A stretch of 64,000 nucleotides of DNA, taken from Desulfocarbo indianensis. GTDB taxonomy: Bacteria > Desulfobacterota > Desulfarculia > Desulfarculales > Desulfarculaceae. How positions within the stretch are numbered: the stretch's first letter is position 1; each line of letters opens with the position of its first letter. The DNA lies in the NCBI GenBank assembly GCA_001184205.1, contig LBMP01000001.1, forward strand, positions 601,365 to 665,364. Direction: 5' to 3'. The notes under the pieces were generated by a model. That model was not told where the DNA came from, did no database searches, and was given only the letters and a program-made list of their open reading frames with translations. Shown piece by piece: positions 18,272-27,079 of the stretch. The position numbers and the translations under genes were made by a program.

Positions 18272-19030
18272 TTAATGCCCTGCAATCACCCGGTCAAAAA
18301 TATCATAGGCGGAGGCCACCACCGGATTTTCCGCGGGCAACTTGCTGATGGGCTTGCCCGAGAGATCCCACTGGGCCAGCTCATCGTCGTCGGGCAGCCA
18401 GCCGGCCAGCTTGAGCCCCATTTCCTCCACGGTTTTGAGAAGCTCCGGGGAGGGCTCGCCGCGCACCATGCTGAGGATAAGGTAGCATGGCCCGGCCAAC
18501 ACATTCATTTCCCTGGCTAATTCGGCCACGCGCTTGGCGGCGGTGAGAGAGCGGCGCGAGGGATCGGAAACCACGAAAAGAAATTCCATGTGCGCCGTGG
18601 TCACCCGGCTGATGTGCTCCATGCCGGCTTCGTTGTCGATGACCAAGTATTTATAATTATTAGCCAGTTTATCCATGGCCGCGGTGAGGAGGTTGTTGGC
18701 GGCGCAATAGCAGCCCGCGCCCTCGGGCCGGCCCATGGCTATCAGGTCGAAGCCATTGTCCTCCACCAGGGCCTGGTTGACCCGCATCTCGATGAAAATA
18801 TCCTTGGTCATGTTGGGATTTTGGGCGGCGGTGGATTTCATTTCCTCGCGCGCCTCGCCCAGGGTGGCCTCTACCGTGAGGCCCAGTACTTCGTTGAGGT
18901 TGGTGTTCGAATCGGCGTCCACCGCCAGAACCGGCGTCATGCCCTTATCCACCAGGTAGCGCACCAAAAGGCCGGCGGTGGTGGTCTTGCCCACGCCGCC
19001 CTTGCCGGCCACCGCTATATTGATAGCCAA
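18272..19030 (-). CDS. cooC: CO dehydrogenase/acetyl-CoA synthase nickel-insertion ATPase CooC (AcsF type)
   Basis: MinD/ParA-like P-loop ATPase that loads nickel into CO dehydrogenase or acetyl-CoA synthase. Deviant Walker A AGKGGVGKTTTAG is at residues 7-19, a VDADSNTNL motif at about 41-49, and a Cys-rich turn GAGCYCAANN at about 112-121, as expected for metal-linked dimer contacts. I place the start at TTG 19030 because AAAGGAG sits just upstream and the protein then begins LAINIAVAGKGG; an ATG 18 codons earlier gives a non-family extension. It lies immediately upstream of acsD. Confidence 0.88.
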   Translation of the reverse strand: MAINIAVAGKGGVGKTTTAGLLVRYLVDKGMTPVLAVDADSNTNLNEVLGLTVEATLGEAREEMKSTAAQNPNMTKDIFIEMRVNQALVEDNGFDLIAMGRPEGAGCYCAANNLLTAAMDKLANNYKYLVIDNEAGMEHISRVTTAHMEFLFVVSDPSRRSLTAAKRVAELAREMNVLAGPCYLILSMVRGEPSPELLKTVEEMGLKLAGWLPDDDELAQWDLSGKPISKLPAENPVVASAYDIFDRVIAGH

Positions 19031-19107
19031 TGCTGTCTCCTTTGTGCCGCCCCTCGCCCCGGGCGGCCTCTTGCGTCCGTTCATCGGCGCAGGTTATCTA
19101 ACTTACT

Positions 19108-19126
19108 GGTTATTTTCATCATAACC
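19108..19126. promoter_or_regulatory. Inverted repeat between cooC and dnaA
   Basis: GGTTAT (19108-19113), a 7-base AT-rich spacer and ATAACC (19121-19126) form a perfect inverted repeat in the 191-base divergent region. It could be an operator for either gene. No DnaA box matching the consensus was found here. Confidence 0.35.
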
Positions 19127-19221
19127 ATAATGAAAAACTCCCGGACTTTCAAGTCTTTTGATATCCGGGCGGCCTGGCCTGCGTTAGGAATACTTGCCTT
19201 CAATGGGGGCTTGCCGCTAAT

Positions 19222-20700
19222 ATGTATGCGGAACCAACGCTTATCAGCATGAGCACCTGCCCTTTTCATTGGGGGGCCTTTCAAGTTTTGCCAGCAGACG
19301 ACCGCCAATACGCGCCCCCGGTGGATGATGCGCCGGCAAGCGCCCAAAGCCTGTGGTCAGAGGTGAGCCAACGCCTGCGGGCCGGCATGAACGCCCAGGA
19401 ATACGAGACCTGGTTCAAGCCGGTGGCCCTGCGGGTGGACGGCGACCAGGCGGTCTTGGTGGTGCCCAATCATTTTTTCAGCGAGTGGATCAAGGAGCGC
19501 CACGCGGAATCCCTGACCAGGGCGCTCAGGGAAACCACCGGCCGCAGCCTGATGATCTCCTTTGAGCTGAAATCCGGCGAGACAGGCCAGTCCCTGGAAA
19601 AAGAGGCGGGACCGCAACGCCTGGAGGCGGAAAGCGATAAACCAGAGGCGTCCAATCCCTTGGCGCCGCGCTACACCTTCGGCACCTTCGTGGTGGGCCC
19701 CTGCAACGAATTGGCTCACGCCGCCTGCCAGGCGGTGGCCGACCACCCCGGCCGACAATACAATCCCCTTTTCATCTTCGGCGCGGCCGGCCTGGGCAAA
19801 ACCCATCTGCTCAGCGCGGTGGGCAACCACATCCTCAAACGCTTCCCTTCTCATAAGGTGGTCTACTGCTCCACCGAGGTATTCACCAACGAACTGATCC
19901 AGGCTGTGCGTTTCGACGGCATCAATTCCTTCCGCGACAAATACCGCCAGGTTGACGGCCTGTTATTGGACGATATCCAGTTCTTGGCGGGCCGCGAACG
20001 GACCCAGGAAGAGTTTTTCCATACCTTCAATGCGTTATATGAATCGGGCAAGCAGATAATCCTCACCTCCGACAAGATGCCACGGGACATTCCCGGCCTG
20101 GAAAAGCGTTTGCAGACCCGTTTCGAGTGGGGATTGCTCACCGACCTGCAGCCGCCGGACGCGGAAACCAAGGTGGCCATCCTGCAGGCCAAGGCCGCCG
20201 AGCAGGGGGTGGATCTATCGCGGCAGGTCTGCTTTTTCCTGGCCAGCCAGCCGGAGAGCAACGTCAGGGTGTTGGAAGGCTATCTGACCCGCATCATCGC
20301 GGTGAGCAACTTCCAGGGGGTGGAGGTCACCCTGGATCTGGTGCGCCGGGTGGTGGGCCCCATGCTGTCGGAGCGCCAGGTCAACCTGGAGGAAGTGCTT
20401 TTGGTGGTGGCCCGCAACTACGGCATCAAGGTGACCGACATCAAAAGCTCCCGCAAGACCCGCGACGTCACCCATCCCCGCCAGGTGGCCATGTATCTGG
20501 CCCGCCGCCTGACCAGGGCCTCGTTTCCCGAGATAGGCAAGGCCTTTGGCAACAAGGACCATTCCACGGTGGTCAAGGGGATGAAGAAGCTGGAGCGCCT
20601 GCTTCTGGAAACCCCGGAAGAGGCCGAAAGGGTGCGCTCCCTGGAAAGAATCCTCCGGGAAGGCGGGGCCGCCGCCGAGGCGCGGGGGATCAATGGTTGA
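19222..20700 (+). CDS. dnaA: Chromosomal replication initiator DnaA
   Basis: Initiator AAA+ ATPase that binds DnaA boxes and opens the origin. Domain I begins at about residue 42 ([13 protein letters not shown]). Domain III has Walker [12 protein letters not shown] and Walker [13 protein letters not shown]. Domain IV has the box-binding helix-turn-helix with [16 protein letters not shown] and [14 protein letters not shown]. The N-terminus before domain I is unusually long (about 40 residues) and no strong ribosome site is visible, so the true start may be an ATG at 19249 or a GTG at 19321. Confidence 0.95.
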
Positions 20701-20876
20701 GAAACCAGCGGCGCCGAGGCGCGGCGGTGGAAAGGTGGAAAAGCCGGTGGAAAACCGGTCGGCCCGCGAAACCCATTGCCCGCCGCCTCAAAAGCCGATT
20801 CAGCGGGGTTATCCACCTAACTCACCGGCCTAGATGATTGCTATTAAATTTAAGAAAAAAGAATTATCAATATAGG
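20701..20876. other. Candidate replication origin (oriC) behind dnaA
   Basis: Four DnaA-box-like sites cluster just after dnaA: GGTGGAAAG (20726-20734), GGTGGAAAA (20734-20742), GGTGGAAAA (20746-20754) and TTATCCACC (20809-20817). Each differs from TTWTNCACA or its complement by one or two bases. They are followed at 20832-20875 by a strongly AT-rich stretch suited to unwinding. This box-cluster plus AT-rich order next to dnaA is what bacterial origins look like. Confidence 0.6.
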
Positions 20877-21675
20877 GCGCCCCAGGCGGCGCAGGAAAGA
20901 AAGCGGGAAGAGAAAAGTCAGGGAAGCGCGGGGAAGAAAAGAGTCCGGCACCAGGCCCAGCCGCAACCCGCCCCCGCGATGAACGCTCGAAGAAGCTCTC
21001 TGAAAAGCCGTCCTCGTCTTGGCAGCGCCCCGGTGAGCGTCTCTAACCAACTCGAAGCGCTCTTATGTATCCATCCCTGGTCGTGAGCCGCCAATCTGGC
21101 CGGGCGAGATATAGCTAACCGTCGTCCTCCATTCCCGGCATCCTCATCCATCGTATAACTTAGTTATAATACGCGTCTTTTACCTAAAAACTCCAATTCA
21201 AGGCATCCCCGGGCGTCTATCTTCCCGGCTATCGCGTCTCCCTTGCTTTTCGCGCTGAGTAAGCAAAGCGGGCTTGGACCTCTGGTCTTCTCTGGATAAT
21301 GAAATGGTCAGCCGCTCGCTTTTCCATCTTCAAATCGGCAAGCATCGCGCTCAAGCGCACAAATTTTACCGCCCCGTACGGTTAAGAATTGCCATTCCGT
21401 TATTGAAAATGGTACCTTCCCTTTACCATCTTTCATTTTTGATACTTGACATACAGATGGCGATAGCTAGATTATAGCTATGATTATTTAACGGTATACG
21501 GAATTAATGATCCCACTTCTTTGAATCCCGCTTCTCGGGGATCGTCTTGCTGCTAGACGAGTGATTACCATCTGGTGTTTTGGCTTTCGACCATTTGCCG
21601 CTGGTTTGATTGGCGGCCAGCCAAACCCGTTGACTTTTGTCAGGTTGGCCAGCCATAACTTGAGGAGCGAAGCCG
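20877..21675. other. Long non-coding region between the origin and a chemoreceptor gene
   Basis: No credible gene. 20890-20950 is purine-rich. ATAACTTAGTTAT (21155-21167) is a perfect 13-base palindrome embedded in TATAAT-like sequence. A promoter lies at 21446-21473 and gives the chemoreceptor a leader of about 190 bases that contains GGCCAGCC-type inverted repeats (about 21610-21655). The AT-rich parts (21150-21200, 21360-21500) could also belong to a bipartite origin. Confidence 0.5.
21446..21473 (+). promoter_or_regulatory. Sigma-70-type promoter for the dCache chemoreceptor gene
   Basis: TTGACA (21446-21451), a 16-base spacer and TAGATT (21468-21473). The -35 is perfect and the -10 fair. 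It is the best promoter-like sequence upstream of the gene at 21676. Confidence 0.45.
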
Positions 21676-23484
21676 ATGAAATTAAGCCTGCGCAACAAGT
21701 TCATGTTTCCCACCCTGGCCCTGATCCTGGTGGGCCTGGGCGTGGCCTCCTTGGCCAGTTTTTACAATGCTTCCGGTTCCTTGGAAAAGGCGTATAAAGA
21801 ACAGGTGCGTTCCACAGCCGACGCCACCGCCGGTCAGATATCTTCCTGGCTGGCGGACCGGGCCGTGGAAATAAAGCTTTTGGCCAGCAACAACATGTAC
21901 GGCACCGCCACCATGGCCTCGGCCACCATGGCCCACAAGGTGGTCAGCAAGGAATTGAAATCATATCGGGAAGCCAAGCCCTATTATGAAATATTCGTCC
22001 TGAGCGACAACGTCGGCATCCTGCGCGCGGCCTCCGACGAGAGCGTGCTGGACAAGATAACCATAAGCGATCGCGAATATTTCAAAATCGCCATGCAGGG
22101 CAAGCTAAACTTCTCGGAACCCATCATGAGCAAGGCATCGGGCCAGCCGGTGGTTTCCATAGCGGCTCCGATTTTACGGGGCGATACCGTCACCGGAGTC
22201 TTGTTGGGAGTCTTGGATTTGTCCGCTTTCACCGGCCAGTTCATCGATAACCTGCGGGTGGGCCAGAGCGGTTATGTCTACCTGATCAACCATACCGGGC
22301 AAGTGCTGGCCTATCCCGACAAAAAGGAAATACTCAAACTTAATATCGGCCAATACGATTTCGGCCGGGAGATTCTGGCCAAAAAGAAGGGGATGATAGA
22401 CTACGAATTCAAAGGCCTCGAAAAAATAGCCGCCTTCGCGCCGGTGGAGGGCCGTGATTGGATAGTGGTGGCCTCGGCCAATACGGAGGATCTTTTGGCG
22501 CCGGCCAGGGAATTGGGTCTGATCAACCTGGTGATCGCCTTGCTGGTGCTGGTGGTGGGCGCGGTGGTGATCTTCCTGGTGGCCCGCTCCATTACCAAGC
22601 CGGTGGATTTGATAATCACCGAGTTGAATCAAGGCTCGCATCAGGTTTCCGGGGCTTCCGACCAGGTCTCCGCCGCCAGCCAAAGCCTGGCCCAGGGCAC
22701 CAGCCAGCAGGCCGCTTCCCTGGAGGAGACCGCGTCCGCCCTGGAGCAGATGGCCTCCATGACCAGGCAGAACGCTGACAACGCCGGCCAGGCCGACGGC
22801 CTGATGCGCCAGACCAGCGAGGTCATGCAAAGAGCCGCCCATTCCATGCAGGAAATGATGTCATCCATGGCCGAGATCAGCCATGCCTCGGAAGAAGTTT
22901 CCAAGATAGTCAAATCCATCGATGAAATCGCCTTCCAGACCAATCTGCTGGCCTTGAACGCGGCGGTGGAGGCGGCCCGGGCCGGCGAAGCCGGGGCGGG
23001 ATTCGCGGTGGTGGCCGACGAGGTCCGCAACTTGGCCATGCGCGCGGCGGAAGCGGCCAAGAGCACCGAGAGCCTCATCGAAGGAACCGTGGCCAAGGTG
23101 AAGCACGGCGGCGAGATTATGGAACGCACCAACAGGGAATACGGCGAGGTGAGCGACAACAGCCTCAAGGTGGGGGAACTGGTGGGCGAAATCGCCGCGG
23201 CTTCCAAGGAGCAATCCCAGGGCATCGACCAGGTGAGCAAGGCGGTCAGCGAAATGGACGCGGTCACCCAGAAGAACGCGGCCACCGCCGAGGAATCGGC
23301 CTCGGCGGCCGAGGAGCTTTCCGCCCAGTCGGCGGTGATGCTGGAGGTGGTGGAACGCCTGGACGCCCTGGTCAAGGGAGGCGAGGCCGGCGTCGGCCAA
23401 GGCGCTTCCATCTACGCCACCCTTGAAGACGAGCCGGAAATAAAGGACCGGCGGAACCTGCTGCCCTGGAAAAGGAATGATTAA
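21676..23484 (+). CDS. Methyl-accepting chemotaxis protein with extracytoplasmic dCache-type sensor
   Basis: Chemoreceptor. Helix 1 (about residues 8-30), then a periplasmic double-Cache domain with [11 protein letters not shown] and [21 protein letters not shown], typical of small-molecule sensors, then helix 2 (about 278-302). A standard HAMP domain is missing or very short; the coiled coil begins almost at once. The signalling tip [20 protein letters not shown] is fully conserved and binds CheA/CheW. The ligand is unknown. The ATG follows GAGGAG. It separates dnaA from dnaN, which is unusual. Confidence 0.92.
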
Positions 23485-23825
23485 TAGCCTTATCTGAAGG
23501 CTCAGCGGCCAGACCAACGCGGCGCGGTCTCCTCTTAGGAATCGGCGCCGCGTTTTTTGAAAGCGCTTTATAATCTGGAGTTGGGCCGTTGGCGGCGTTA
23601 TGGTGGGAATAGGGCCGGCCATGCCATCACAGCGTGTTTCAGCATGGGGGTCCTTGCCATAAGGTTTTAGTAACCGGCTGGTTAGTGGTTAGATAATTCA
23701 AGACGCCACCCTGGCCTGGCGGCCTGGCGAGAGCGGTATTTTACATGCTGAAGCTTGTCAGGCCGGGGGTTTGTGAGGTATGGTAGGCTTTCAAAAGCAC
23801 TAACTTAAACAGGGGTGGAAACTCC
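23485..23825. other. Intergenic region before dnaN
   Basis: 341 bases holding the chemoreceptor terminator (23516-23558) and then mixed sequence with no clear gene. The dnaN promoter is probably in the last 150 bases, but no strong -35/-10 pair was found. Confidence 0.4.
23516..23558 (+). terminator. Rho-independent terminator after the dCache chemoreceptor
   Basis: AACGCGGCG (23516-23524) pairs with CGCCGCGTT (23546-23554) and runs into TTTTTT. The loop is long (21 bases) but the 9-bp GC stem and the T-run are clear. Confidence 0.7.
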
Positions 23826-24941
23826 ATGGAACTGACCGTAAAGAAAGACGACCTGGCCAAGGGGCTGGCCAAGTCCCAGTCCGTGGTGGAGCGGCGCACC
23901 TCCATGCCGATTCTTTCCAACGTGCTCTTGGAGGCCGAGGGAGAGAATATCACCGTCACCGCCACGGATCTTGAAACCAGCTTCCTGGGGTCATACCCGG
24001 CACGGGTCAGCAAGCCGGGCAGGCTTACGGTGCCGGCCCGCAAGCTCTATGAGATAGTCAAGGAGCTTCCTTCCGAAGAGGTGTATCTCAAGGAAAAGGA
24101 AAACTCCTTCCTGCATATTTCCGGTGGGCGGGCCAATTATGATTTGGTGGGGCTTTCGGCGGAAGATTTCCCGGAGTTGCCCCAGGTGGACGGCATGCCG
24201 GAGCTGCTCTTTGACGGAGACCTCCTGGCCGAAATGATCGAGAAAACCATCTTCTCCATCAGCCAGGAGGAAACCCGTTTCAATCTGGCCGGCTTGTACG
24301 TGCAGAAGCGTAAAAAAGACGAAGGCCCGCGTCTCAGGTTCGTTTCCACCGACGGCCATCGGCTGTCTTTGATCGACCGCGAGGTCTCCGGCCTGGATGA
24401 CTTCAACCTGGAGGAAGGGGTGATAATCCCCCGCAAGGGCGTGGCCGAGATGCGGAAACTGGCCGAGGAGGGCGGCGAACTGGCCCTGGGGCTCAGCCAA
24501 AACTTCGCGGTGGTCAAAAAAGACGAAGTGCTGCTGATGCTTCGCATGCAAGAGGGTTCCTTCCCGGATTATGAAGTCGTGGTCCCCAAGCACATCAAGA
24601 AGCAGGCGGTGGTCAACCGCCAGGCCTTCGCCGACGTGCTGCGGCGCATGGCCATCATGGCCACCGACCGCTTCCAGGGCGTGCGCCTGGACTTCAAGAG
24701 CGGCCTTTTAGAGGTGGTGAGTCAGAACCCGGATTTGGGCGAGGCCCGCGAAGCCTTGGAAATGGATTACGACGGCGACACTTTGAGCGTTGGCTTTAAT
24801 GCGCGCTATTTCCTGGACCTGTGCTCGGCCATGCGCTCCGAGGAGATAAGCCTGGGATTCGTGGACGAGCAGAATCCTTGCGTGATCACCGGCGAGGCCG
24901 ACACGGGTTTCTTAAGCGTTATCATGCCCATGCGCCTCTAA
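23826..24941 (+). CDS. dnaN: DNA polymerase III beta subunit (sliding clamp) DnaN
   Basis: Ring-shaped processivity clamp. Three repeated clamp domains fill the 371 aa, the usual length, with MPILSNVLLEAEGENITVTATDLE near the N-terminus (shown in part), FVSTDGHRLSLID in the middle and the C-terminal VIMPMRL that closes the ring and forms part of the client pocket. An upstream GGGGTGG acts as ribosome site. The gene follows dnaA on the same strand, but with a chemoreceptor between them and no recF after it. Confidence 0.95.
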   Translation: MELTVKKDDLAKGLAKSQSVVERRTSMPILSNVLLEAEGENITVTATDLETSFLGSYPARVSKPGRLTVPARKLYEIVKELPSEEVYLKEKENSFLHISGGRANYDLVGLSAEDFPELPQVDGMPELLFDGDLLAEMIEKTIFSISQEETRFNLAGLYVQKRKKDEGPRLRFVSTDGHRLSLIDREVSGLDDFNLEEGVIIPRKGVAEMRKLAEEGGELALGLSQNFAVVKKDEVLLMLRMQEGSFPDYEVVVPKHIKKQAVVNRQAFADVLRRMAIMATDRFQGVRLDFKSGLLEVVSQNPDLGEAREALEMDYDGDTLSVGFNARYFLDLCSAMRSEEISLGFVDEQNPCVITGEADTGFLSVIMPMRL

Positions 24942-25210: not shown

Positions 25211-26350
25211 TTATTCCCCAAGAATATCAAGATAGTCCTTATAAATAAAAAATCTATAACGTTCCGATATATCTTTTTGATATAATAAGTTATTTTCTAA
25301 AAATCTTTTAATAACGTTATTAGCACCTTGGTAACTGCAGGCAAGATGTGAACTGGCTAACTTTACATCCAACACCGGATTAATAAACAGTAAATCCAAC
25401 AACTTTTGAGCTAATTCGCTTCTGCCGCCGACCAGTTGGCGGTGTTCGTCGCGGAGATTTTGTATTTTACGCGCTTTATCCATAGCTTCTTTAGCAACAT
25501 CGCGCACGCCATTTAAGAAGAAAAGAAGCCAAGCTTCCCAAGACCCTTGATCTCTGACGGCTTGCAGGCGTTCATAATACTCCTGTCGATGCTTTTTGAA
25601 GTAGTAGGATAGATAAAGCAGGGGACGCTTTAGGGTACCTTGCCAACATAGTAAAAAGGTGATGAGAAGTCTTCCCATACGTCCGTTTCCATCTAAAAAG
25701 GGATGTATGGTTTCGAACTGGGAGTGGGCCAAGCCGCATTTTAACAAAGGCGGCAACGGGTTCTGATCGTGTAAAAAAGATTCCAACTCACCCATTATTT
25801 TGTTTATATCCTGATGAGGAGGTGGAATAAAGACCGCGTCGTTCATAGAACCCCCAGTGGGGCCTATCCAGTTTTGGTAACGTCGGAATGATCCGGGGTC
25901 TTTTTCGCTCCCGCGTACTCCTTCAAGTAATTTAGCGTGGATTTCTTTTAAAAGACGGCTTGAAAGGGGCAACGAAGCCAACCTTTCCAATCCGAAATTC
26001 ATGGCGGCCACATAATTGGATACCTCTTTGGTGTCCTCAGGGTTGTCACGCCGCACCCTGCCAGCTTCATATTCCAGGAGATCGGTTAGAGACGCTTGAG
26101 TGCCTTCTATTTGTGAGGAGTAGACGGCTTCCTTTCGTACATACATCCGAATAAACAGGTCCGGGTTTGGTAAAAGTTCGGTGGCTGAATCCAGCCTGCC
26201 GATGGCCCGATCCGCTGCCGAAAGCATGTCAAGCAGTTGGGGCGACAAAACCAAAGGAGGGTCCGGCGGCAAAGGTTTAGGAATAAATGCTTGATATCCA
26301 GTTAGTTGTTTTATATAAACTCCAGCGCGGTCTGACGTTTGGTGTGGCAT
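25211..26350 (-). CDS. Fic family protein with N-terminal inhibitory helix
   Basis: Likely AMP-transferase that adds AMP to a protein hydroxyl. The N-terminal Fic_N domain carries the inhibitory motif SSQIEGTQ (about residues 78-85), whose Glu blocks ATP binding until relieved. The catalytic loop is HPFLDGNGRMGR with His216. The C-terminus (about 310-379) is a winged-helix-like unit, common in this class, which may bind its own promoter or a target. Codons are much more A/T-ending than in neighbours and the gene sits between 40-bp inverted repeats, so acquisition is likely. Confidence 0.92.
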   Translation of the reverse strand: MPHQTSDRAGVYIKQLTGYQAFIPKPLPPDPPLVLSPQLLDMLSAADRAIGRLDSATELLPNPDLFIRMYVRKEAVYSSQIEGTQASLTDLLEYEAGRVRRDNPEDTKEVSNYVAAMNFGLERLASLPLSSRLLKEIHAKLLEGVRGSEKDPGSFRRYQNWIGPTGGSMNDAVFIPPPHQDINKIMGELESFLHDQNPLPPLLKCGLAHSQFETIHPFLDGNGRMGRLLITFLLCWQGTLKRPLLYLSYYFKKHRQEYYERLQAVRDQGSWEAWLLFFLNGVRDVAKEAMDKARKIQNLRDEHRQLVGGRSELAQKLLDLLFINPVLDVKLASSHLACSYQGANNVIKRFLENNLLYQKDISERYRFFIYKDYLDILGE

Positions 26351-26421: not shown

Positions 26422-26468
26422 GCGCGGCTAATTAAACAAAACAAGCCGTTTCGTTTAATTAGCCGCGC
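26422..26468. repeat. Right copy of inverted repeat flanking fic
   Basis: GCGCGGCTAATTAAAC at one end and GTTTAATTAGCCGCGC at the other make a near-perfect palindrome. The inner 40 bases (26424-26463) are the reverse complement of 25128-25167 except for one base in the loop. It lies between the Fic start and the stop of the selenoprotein gene. Confidence 0.8.
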
Positions 26469-26509: not shown

Positions 26510-27079
26510 CTACAGCAAGCGATAGGGCAGCATGCGGTGGGTCCATTCGCTGTCCGGGTAGCGGGAGGCGATATCCTGCTGGGCCGCCTTGAGCACGCCG
26601 GGGTCTTTTTCCAGCCGGTATTTGCTCACAGCCCCCAGATACACCGATTCCGGGGCCGCGAAGCTGCCCGGACACTCTTTAAGTATTTGCTCGAACAAAG
26701 ACCGGGCCTCGGTGAACTGGGCGTGGGCAAAGAAAACCTTGGCCTTCATGAGCATGAGGGCGGGGATGAACTGCGCGGGCTCCAGAAAGCCCACCACCCG
26801 CTGATGCTCATGGCCGTCTGAATCCAGCGCCAGCAGGGTGGGCGTCCAGCGCAGGAAAAAGGCGTCGGCCCTTTCTCCGTTGGGGGAAAGGCGCAGGGGA
26901 ACGAAGTTGGCGCTGATGAAGTCCTGTACTTTTTGGTCGGGATACGTGACCGCACCCATCTGCTCGCAGCCGATTCAGCCCGGCAGGTAAAAATCTAATA
27001 ATACTGGTAATTTTCTCATCTTGGCCTCTGTCAAGGCCTGATGCCAGTCCTCGAACCATTGTATTTTACTATCGGACAT
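26510..27079 (-). CDS. Thioredoxin-fold selenoprotein with UxxC motif and TPR-like tail (189 aa, TGA read as selenocysteine)
   Basis: Probable thiol/selenol oxidoreductase. Translation from the ATG at 27079 (AAAGGAG 5 bases upstream) gives MSDSKIQWFEDWHQALTEAK, then LPVLLDFYLPG, an in-frame TGA at 26975-26977, then IGCEQMGAVTYPD and an uninterrupted frame to 26510. The TGA falls exactly where the thioredoxin CxxC first cysteine belongs, giving Sec35-Ile-Gly-Cys38. The cis-Pro motif WTPTLLALDSDG and family text continue on both sides. Residues about 110-189 resemble a TPR-like helical tail. Read as a stop, the TGA would leave a 149-aa fragment lacking the active site. Confidence 0.82.
26948..26977 (-). 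promoter_or_regulatory. Putative bacterial SECIS hairpin after the UGA
   Basis: Directly after the UGA (26975-26977) the mRNA can form a 6-bp stem GGCUGC (26966-26971) with GCGGUC (26948-26953), using two G-U pairs, around a 12-base loop ending AUGGGU. Bacterial selenocysteine insertion needs such a hairpin just downstream of the UGA for SelB binding. Position and size fit; pairing strength was not computed. Confidence 0.5.

What the first reader, a model, noticed from the sequence alone, without database searches (positions are those of the whole stretch)
26510..27079. Hidden selenoprotein: thioredoxin-fold UxxC protein read through an in-frame TGA
A TGA at 26975-26977 interrupts a gene that otherwise reads as one thioredoxin-like protein from ATG 27079 to 26510. 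The TGA stands exactly at the first cysteine of the CxxC motif and Cys38 follows three residues later. The start has a strong ribosome site and both sides continue the same family text. A hairpin can form right after the codon (26948-26971). Normal gene calling would leave a fragment without its active site. Selenocysteine is common in anaerobic deltaproteobacteria.
Basis: partly seen in the sequence, partly recalled or inferred. Interest (0 to 1): 0.88.

Follow-up and report, generated by a model that had tools for sequence, protein, structure and literature searches.

The report
Selenocysteine-containing thioredoxin-like protein, real
A gene that looks broken by a stop codon is in fact an intact gene for a thioredoxin-like protein carrying the selenium amino acid selenocysteine, and the same recoded stop and RNA signal recur in many relatives; it is real, but it very probably belongs to a selenoprotein family already known since the mid-2000s.

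Summary
The finding is real. The minus-strand gene 27079-26510 reads as one 189-residue protein if the TGA at 26977-26975 is decoded (U35-I-G-C38). The genome has selA, selB, selD and tRNA-Sec(TCA). In a stop-tolerant sample of 395 genomes of the phylum, 79 of 90 hits of at least 145 aligned positions carry exactly one in-frame TGA and none a TAA or TAG. Among 177 distinct members read, all 154 TGAs fall on this column; 21 of the other 23 have Cys there. A SECIS hairpin follows at 26957-26940, 24 nt after the TGA, with a GUCA loop; RNAalifold finds it unaided and it covaries. Closely related pairs are under purifying selection on both sides of the TGA. All 22 Sec-form genomes tested have SelB. 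The protein is a DsbD-gamma-like thioredoxin domain plus a short TPR tail. It is very probably the catalogued selenoprotein family 'thiol:disulfide interchange protein' (PF13098, UxxC; Zhang 2006 and later reviews), so it is a new member of a known kind. NCBIfam has no dedicated model, so gene callers would tend to keep only the 149-residue fragment.

The parts
26510..27079 (-). Complete CDS, 189 aa plus TAG stop, thioredoxin-like UxxC selenoprotein with TPR tail
26975..26977 (-). TGA codon read as selenocysteine, residue 35
   Evidence: U in 154 of 177 members read, Cys in 21
26966..26968 (-). Cys38, second active-site residue of UxxC
   Evidence: invariant column in both alignments
26940..26957 (-). 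bSECIS hairpin: 7-bp stem GGGUGCG/CGUAUCC, loop GUCA, apical loop 24 nt after the UGA
   Evidence: model constraints in PMC13188914
27085..27091 (-). Ribosome binding site AAAGGAG
   Evidence: sequence
26756..27079 (-). Thioredoxin domain, residues 1-108 (PF13098; nearest solved relative DsbD C-terminal domain)
26840..26842 (-). Pro80 of the invariant Thr-Pro, position of the thioredoxin cis-proline
26513..26755 (-). C-terminal helical TPR-like tail, residues 109-189

Best explanation
The gene encodes a full-length 189-residue, probably cytoplasmic, thioredoxin-like selenoprotein. SelB and Sec-tRNA(UCA) decode the UGA at codon 35 as selenocysteine, directed by a bSECIS hairpin 24 nt downstream. 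U35 and C38 form the redox pair. By analogy with thioredoxins and the DsbD gamma domain, Sec would be the attacking nucleophile and Cys38 the resolving residue (inferred). The short TPR tail probably holds a partner or substrate (inferred). Shown: open frame, conservation, SECIS covariation, Sec machinery, and selection in relatives. Inferred: actual Sec insertion, reductase activity and partner.
For: Sec machinery: selB 393 bits against cut-off 242, tRNA-Sec with TCA anticodon, selA 606 bits, selD which itself has an in-frame TGA. Homologues carry TGA at the same codon. In a stop-tolerant phylum sample 79 of 90 long hits have one TGA, none a TAA or TAG. Among 177 members: 154 UxxC, 15 CxxC, no TGA elsewhere. 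The SECIS hairpin is found unaided by RNAalifold, 4 of 6 pairs with double changes; 5 of 7 pairs with double changes, above all 500 shuffles. Purifying selection on both sides of the TGA in four closely related pairs, dN/dS 0.05-0.25. All 22 Sec-form genomes tested have SelB; all 4 tested genomes without it hold non-Sec forms. TGA is an ordinary stop for 21 of 53 ORFs of the window.
Against: No direct evidence of selenium. SECIS energy in the window sequence alone is modest (z = -1.88), and 3 of 46 members do not show the hairpin as their own MFE fold. One further pair gave dN/dS 0.42 and 0.57 (L010/L012), a more distant pair for which this simple estimate is less reliable.
Confidence: 0.96

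Rival explanations
1. Real stop: a pseudogene, or a gene whose product is only the 149-residue C-terminal piece starting at 26959.
For: A plain ORF list gives exactly this fragment.
Against: The 34 codons before the TGA are conserved and under purifying selection in related pairs, the TGA recurs across a whole phylum at one column, and the SECIS covaries.
Confidence: 0.01
2. TGA is reassigned genome-wide or is read as tryptophan or another amino acid by leaky readthrough.
For: None found; readthrough without Sec is possible in principle.
Against: TGA ends 21 of 53 long ORFs in the window. Homologues have Cys, never Trp, at this column. A SECIS and full Sec machinery are present.
Confidence: 0.01
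3. On function: the protein is a Sec form of the CnoX/YbbN chaperedoxin, a thioredoxin-TPR holdase that also reduces its clients and passes them to GroEL (compatible with the best explanation, a rival only to a simple reductase role).
For: Best Foldseek match is YbbN. The model has a thioredoxin domain followed by TPR helices. Caulobacter CnoX has an active CxxC (PMC8129009).
Against: TPR part is about half as long (189 aa in all against 282-285), TM-score only 0.38, and no sequence match to YbbN in the PDB search. The thioredoxin domain is closer to DsbD gamma.
Confidence: 0.15

Closest known systems
Selenoprotein family 'thiol:disulfide interchange protein' (Zhang 2006 PMC1794560; 'Trx-like 2', cd02953, in PMC2398784; PF13098, UxxC, WP_011366075.1 in PMC13188914)
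   Same: Pfam PF13098, UxxC motif, Sec form in Geobacter and Syntrophus. In the 5,136,364-bp genome taken to be G. uraniireducens, listed in 2006 with one such protein, this is the only PF13098 gene with an in-frame TGA.
   Different: No difference shown; the reference protein could not be aligned here. The held text of the two reviews does not mention a TPR tail.
DsbD C-terminal (gamma) thioredoxin domain
   Same: Closest solved relatives by sequence, E about 1e-8.
   Different: No membrane or N-terminal domain, no signal-like N terminus, Sec for Cys, TPR tail.
CnoX/YbbN chaperedoxin
   Same: Thioredoxin domain plus C-terminal TPR.
   Different: Much shorter TPR part; UxxC rather than the SxxC of E. 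coli or CxxC of Caulobacter.
VPGUxxT thioredoxin-like selenoproteins (NF041383, NF041382)
   Same: Thioredoxin-like N terminus with Sec.
   Different: Scores far below cut-off (34.9 bits against 275) and keeps Cys38.

Membership tests
Bacterial selenoproteins | In-frame UGA at a redox position where homologues have Sec or Cys | tested here: met
Bacterial selenoproteins | bSECIS: loop of 3-9 nt, G in its first two positions, 16-37 nt after UGA, stem of at least 4 bp, MFE at most -7.5 kcal/mol | tested here: met
   window: loop GUCA, 24 nt, 7 bp, -9.8 kcal/mol; covariation in 46 members; criteria
Bacterial selenoproteins | selA, selB, selC and selD in the genome | tested here: met
Bacterial selenoproteins | Selenium in the protein | not testable with these tools
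   needs mass spectrometry or 75Se labelling
Thiol:disulfide interchange selenoprotein (PF13098, UxxC) | PF13098 domain over gathering score with UxxC | tested here: met
   39.2 bits against 27; U35-C38
Thiol:disulfide interchange selenoprotein (PF13098, UxxC) | Present as the single Sec-form PF13098 gene in a genome for which the family was reported | tested here: met
   G472, identified as G. uraniireducens only by its recalled length
Thiol:disulfide interchange selenoprotein (PF13098, UxxC) | Alignment with reference WP_011366075.1 | not testable with these tools
   sequence not held
DsbD | Membrane and periplasmic domains around the gamma domain | tested here: not met
   match confined to positions 459-569 of 574, 46 bits against cut-off 330
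[quoted passage not shown]
   thioredoxin plus only about five C-terminal helices, 189 aa; TPR description
CnoX/YbbN | Holdase activity and transfer to GroEL | not testable with these tools
   biochemical
VPGUxxT thioredoxin-like selenoprotein | NF041383 or NF041382 score over cut-off | tested here: not met
   34.9 against 275 and 14.6 against 350 bits

The most novel reading that the evidence does not exclude
A phylum-wide, Sec-dominated minimal 'selenochaperedoxin': a CnoX-like thioredoxin-TPR protein whose active site uses selenocysteine to repair thiols of client proteins in anaerobes exposed to oxygen, with lineages that have switched to Cys or lost the active site.
Probability: 0.12. Interest if true: 0.55.

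Novelty: new member of a known kind. Interest (0 to 1): 0.3.

Why it matters
It confirms that a plain ORF list would truncate this gene and lose its active site, and that the same risk applies to a family found in about a fifth of sampled genomes of the phylum, with no dedicated NCBIfam model. A covariance model of its SECIS with a Sec-aware profile would recover it. The Cys forms in Geobacteraceae genus g264, whose tested members keep SelB, give a natural Sec/Cys comparison.

Tried and rejected
Plasmids: no match. Rfam: nothing in the window. Conserved gene neighbourhood across the phylum: none among the 47 loci; only dnaN linkage in 5 loci, all of the window's own family. Other TGA readthrough candidates in the window were listed; by eye none looked like a coherent second case, but they were not searched against families. 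Literature search for selenoproteins in Desulfarculus: none held.

Full report
Observation. On the minus strand the frame from ATG 27079 runs to TAG 26512-26510 with a single interruption, TGA at 26977-26975, residue 35 of 189; Cys38 follows, giving U-I-G-C. AAAGGAG ends five bases before the start. A standard ORF list keeps only 26959-26510, 149 residues, without the active site.

Machinery. The window lies at G000:C1:601365-665364. The genome has selB over the curated cut-off, a tRNA-Sec that ARAGORN reads with anticodon TCA, selA and selD, itself with an in-frame TGA. TGA is also an ordinary stop: 21 of 53 non-overlapping ORFs of at least 100 aa in the window end in it, so this is not a reassigned code.

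Homologues. In the window's own family (by named contigs Desulfarculus-like: L210 and L236 share contig lengths with G007 and G011) five further genes carry the TGA at the same column and one (G003) has Cys. A stop-tolerant search of 395 genomes sampled from the phylum found 90 hits of at least 145 aligned positions: 79 with exactly one TGA, 11 with none, no TAA or TAG (my tally of the table). Within the class, full-length members were seen only in the window's own family, so the spread is patchy. In Geobacteraceae 39 of 48 genomes have it. Of 177 distinct members read, 154 are UxxC, 15 CxxC, 6 CxxS and 2 others, and no member has a TGA elsewhere; this set includes loci found by a TGA pattern, so its proportion is biased, but the column agreement is not. 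Named carriers include Geobacter sp. AOG1, Geomobilimonas luticola, Desulfofustis glycolicus and MAGs labelled Nitrospirae, Nitrospinota, Planctomycetota and Poribacteria (MAG labels not checked).

SECIS. Forty-six Sec members align without gaps after the UGA. RNAalifold, given no structure, returns one hairpin at columns 21-38, window 26957-26940. Counting the 7-bp version, 91% of cells pair, five pairs have changes on both sides, and no shuffle of 500 reaches this (shuffles do not remove relatedness; the slid controls fall to 24-72% paired, though the slide by -2 has a higher covariation score from one pair). In 43 of 46 the MFE fold of the 48 nt after the UGA meets the published bSECIS constraints on loop, stem and spacing (constraints from PMC13188914; loop limit relaxed to 14 in the script, but the hairpins shown for these 43 have 4- or 6-nt loops). 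The window hairpin folds at -9.8 kcal/mol.

Selection and Sec/Cys exchange. In four closely related pairs dN/dS is 0.05-0.18 before and 0.06-0.25 after the TGA; a fifth, more distant pair gave 0.42 and 0.57. All 22 tested genomes with the Sec form have SelB over cut-off, against 11 of 15 with non-Sec forms, and the four lacking it (G339, G252, G334, G424) all hold non-Sec forms. In Geobacteraceae genus g264 every hit listed lacks the TGA; the 12 read are CxxC and no longer have the CGTAYCC 3' arm of the SECIS stem (by eye), and the six g264 genomes tested keep SelB. Members of family f63 have CxxC, CxxS, TxxS or ExxS sites, consistent with Sec loss and decay.

Protein. Pfam gives Thioredoxin_2 (PF13098) over cut-off and a weak TPR tail. 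The nearest solved chains are the DsbD C-terminal domain. The AlphaFold2 model (mean pLDDT 87.8, although about 70 around the active-site loop) is a thioredoxin fold followed by helices from residue 101. Foldseek ranks YbbN/CnoX first, E 2.9e-6 but TM 0.38, and VIA-align matches the two halves to TPR and thioredoxin structures separately. There is no signal-like N terminus (by eye), so I expect a cytoplasmic protein. No gene neighbour is conserved across the phylum, so partners cannot be read from context.

Comparison with the known. Zhang et al. 2006 list a selenoprotein family 'thiol:disulfide interchange protein' with three members, in Syntrophus aciditrophicus, Geobacter metallireducens and G. 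uraniumreducens; reviews place it in PF13098 with UxxC. In G472, whose contig length of 5,136,364 I recall as that of G. uraniireducens, the only PF13098 gene with an in-frame TGA is a member of the present family. So this is very probably the catalogued family. It has no dedicated NCBIfam model: the best NCBIfam scores of six members are far below cut-off. The TPR tail does not appear in the held text of the two reviews searched for it.

Verdict. The finding is sound and useful for annotation, but of a known kind. Mechanism beyond Sec insertion (reductase, repair or chaperedoxin) is inference.

Noticed in passing
window 26422-26468: Near-perfect 21-nt inverted repeat with a 5-nt loop just downstream of the selenoprotein gene, possibly a terminator or a small mobile element.
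   Followed up: no
window 25211-26350 (-): Fic/DOC-family gene directly downstream; a protein with a similar start also follows the homologue in L011 (G007).
   Followed up: partly
window 18272-24941: dnaN, dnaA and a ParA-like gene lie within about 9 kb, so the gene sits near the replication origin; dnaN linkage recurs in 5 loci of the window's own family.
   Followed up: partly
L048 (G000:C1:157070-157993, -): selD of the same genome also has an in-frame TGA and is itself a likely selenoprotein.
   Followed up: partly
L019 (G020:C185): A second, secreted-looking thioredoxin-like protein with UIYC read through a TGA, outside the full-length family.
   Followed up: no
L285, L286, L288-L297 (Geobacteraceae genus g264): Every listed member of this genus lacks the TGA, and the 12 read use Cys, although the six genomes tested keep SelB: a lineage-wide Sec to Cys switch.
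   Followed up: partly
L115-L121, L126, L127 (family f63): Full-length relatives with decayed active sites (CxxS, TxxS, ExxS) beside one CxxC.
   Followed up: no
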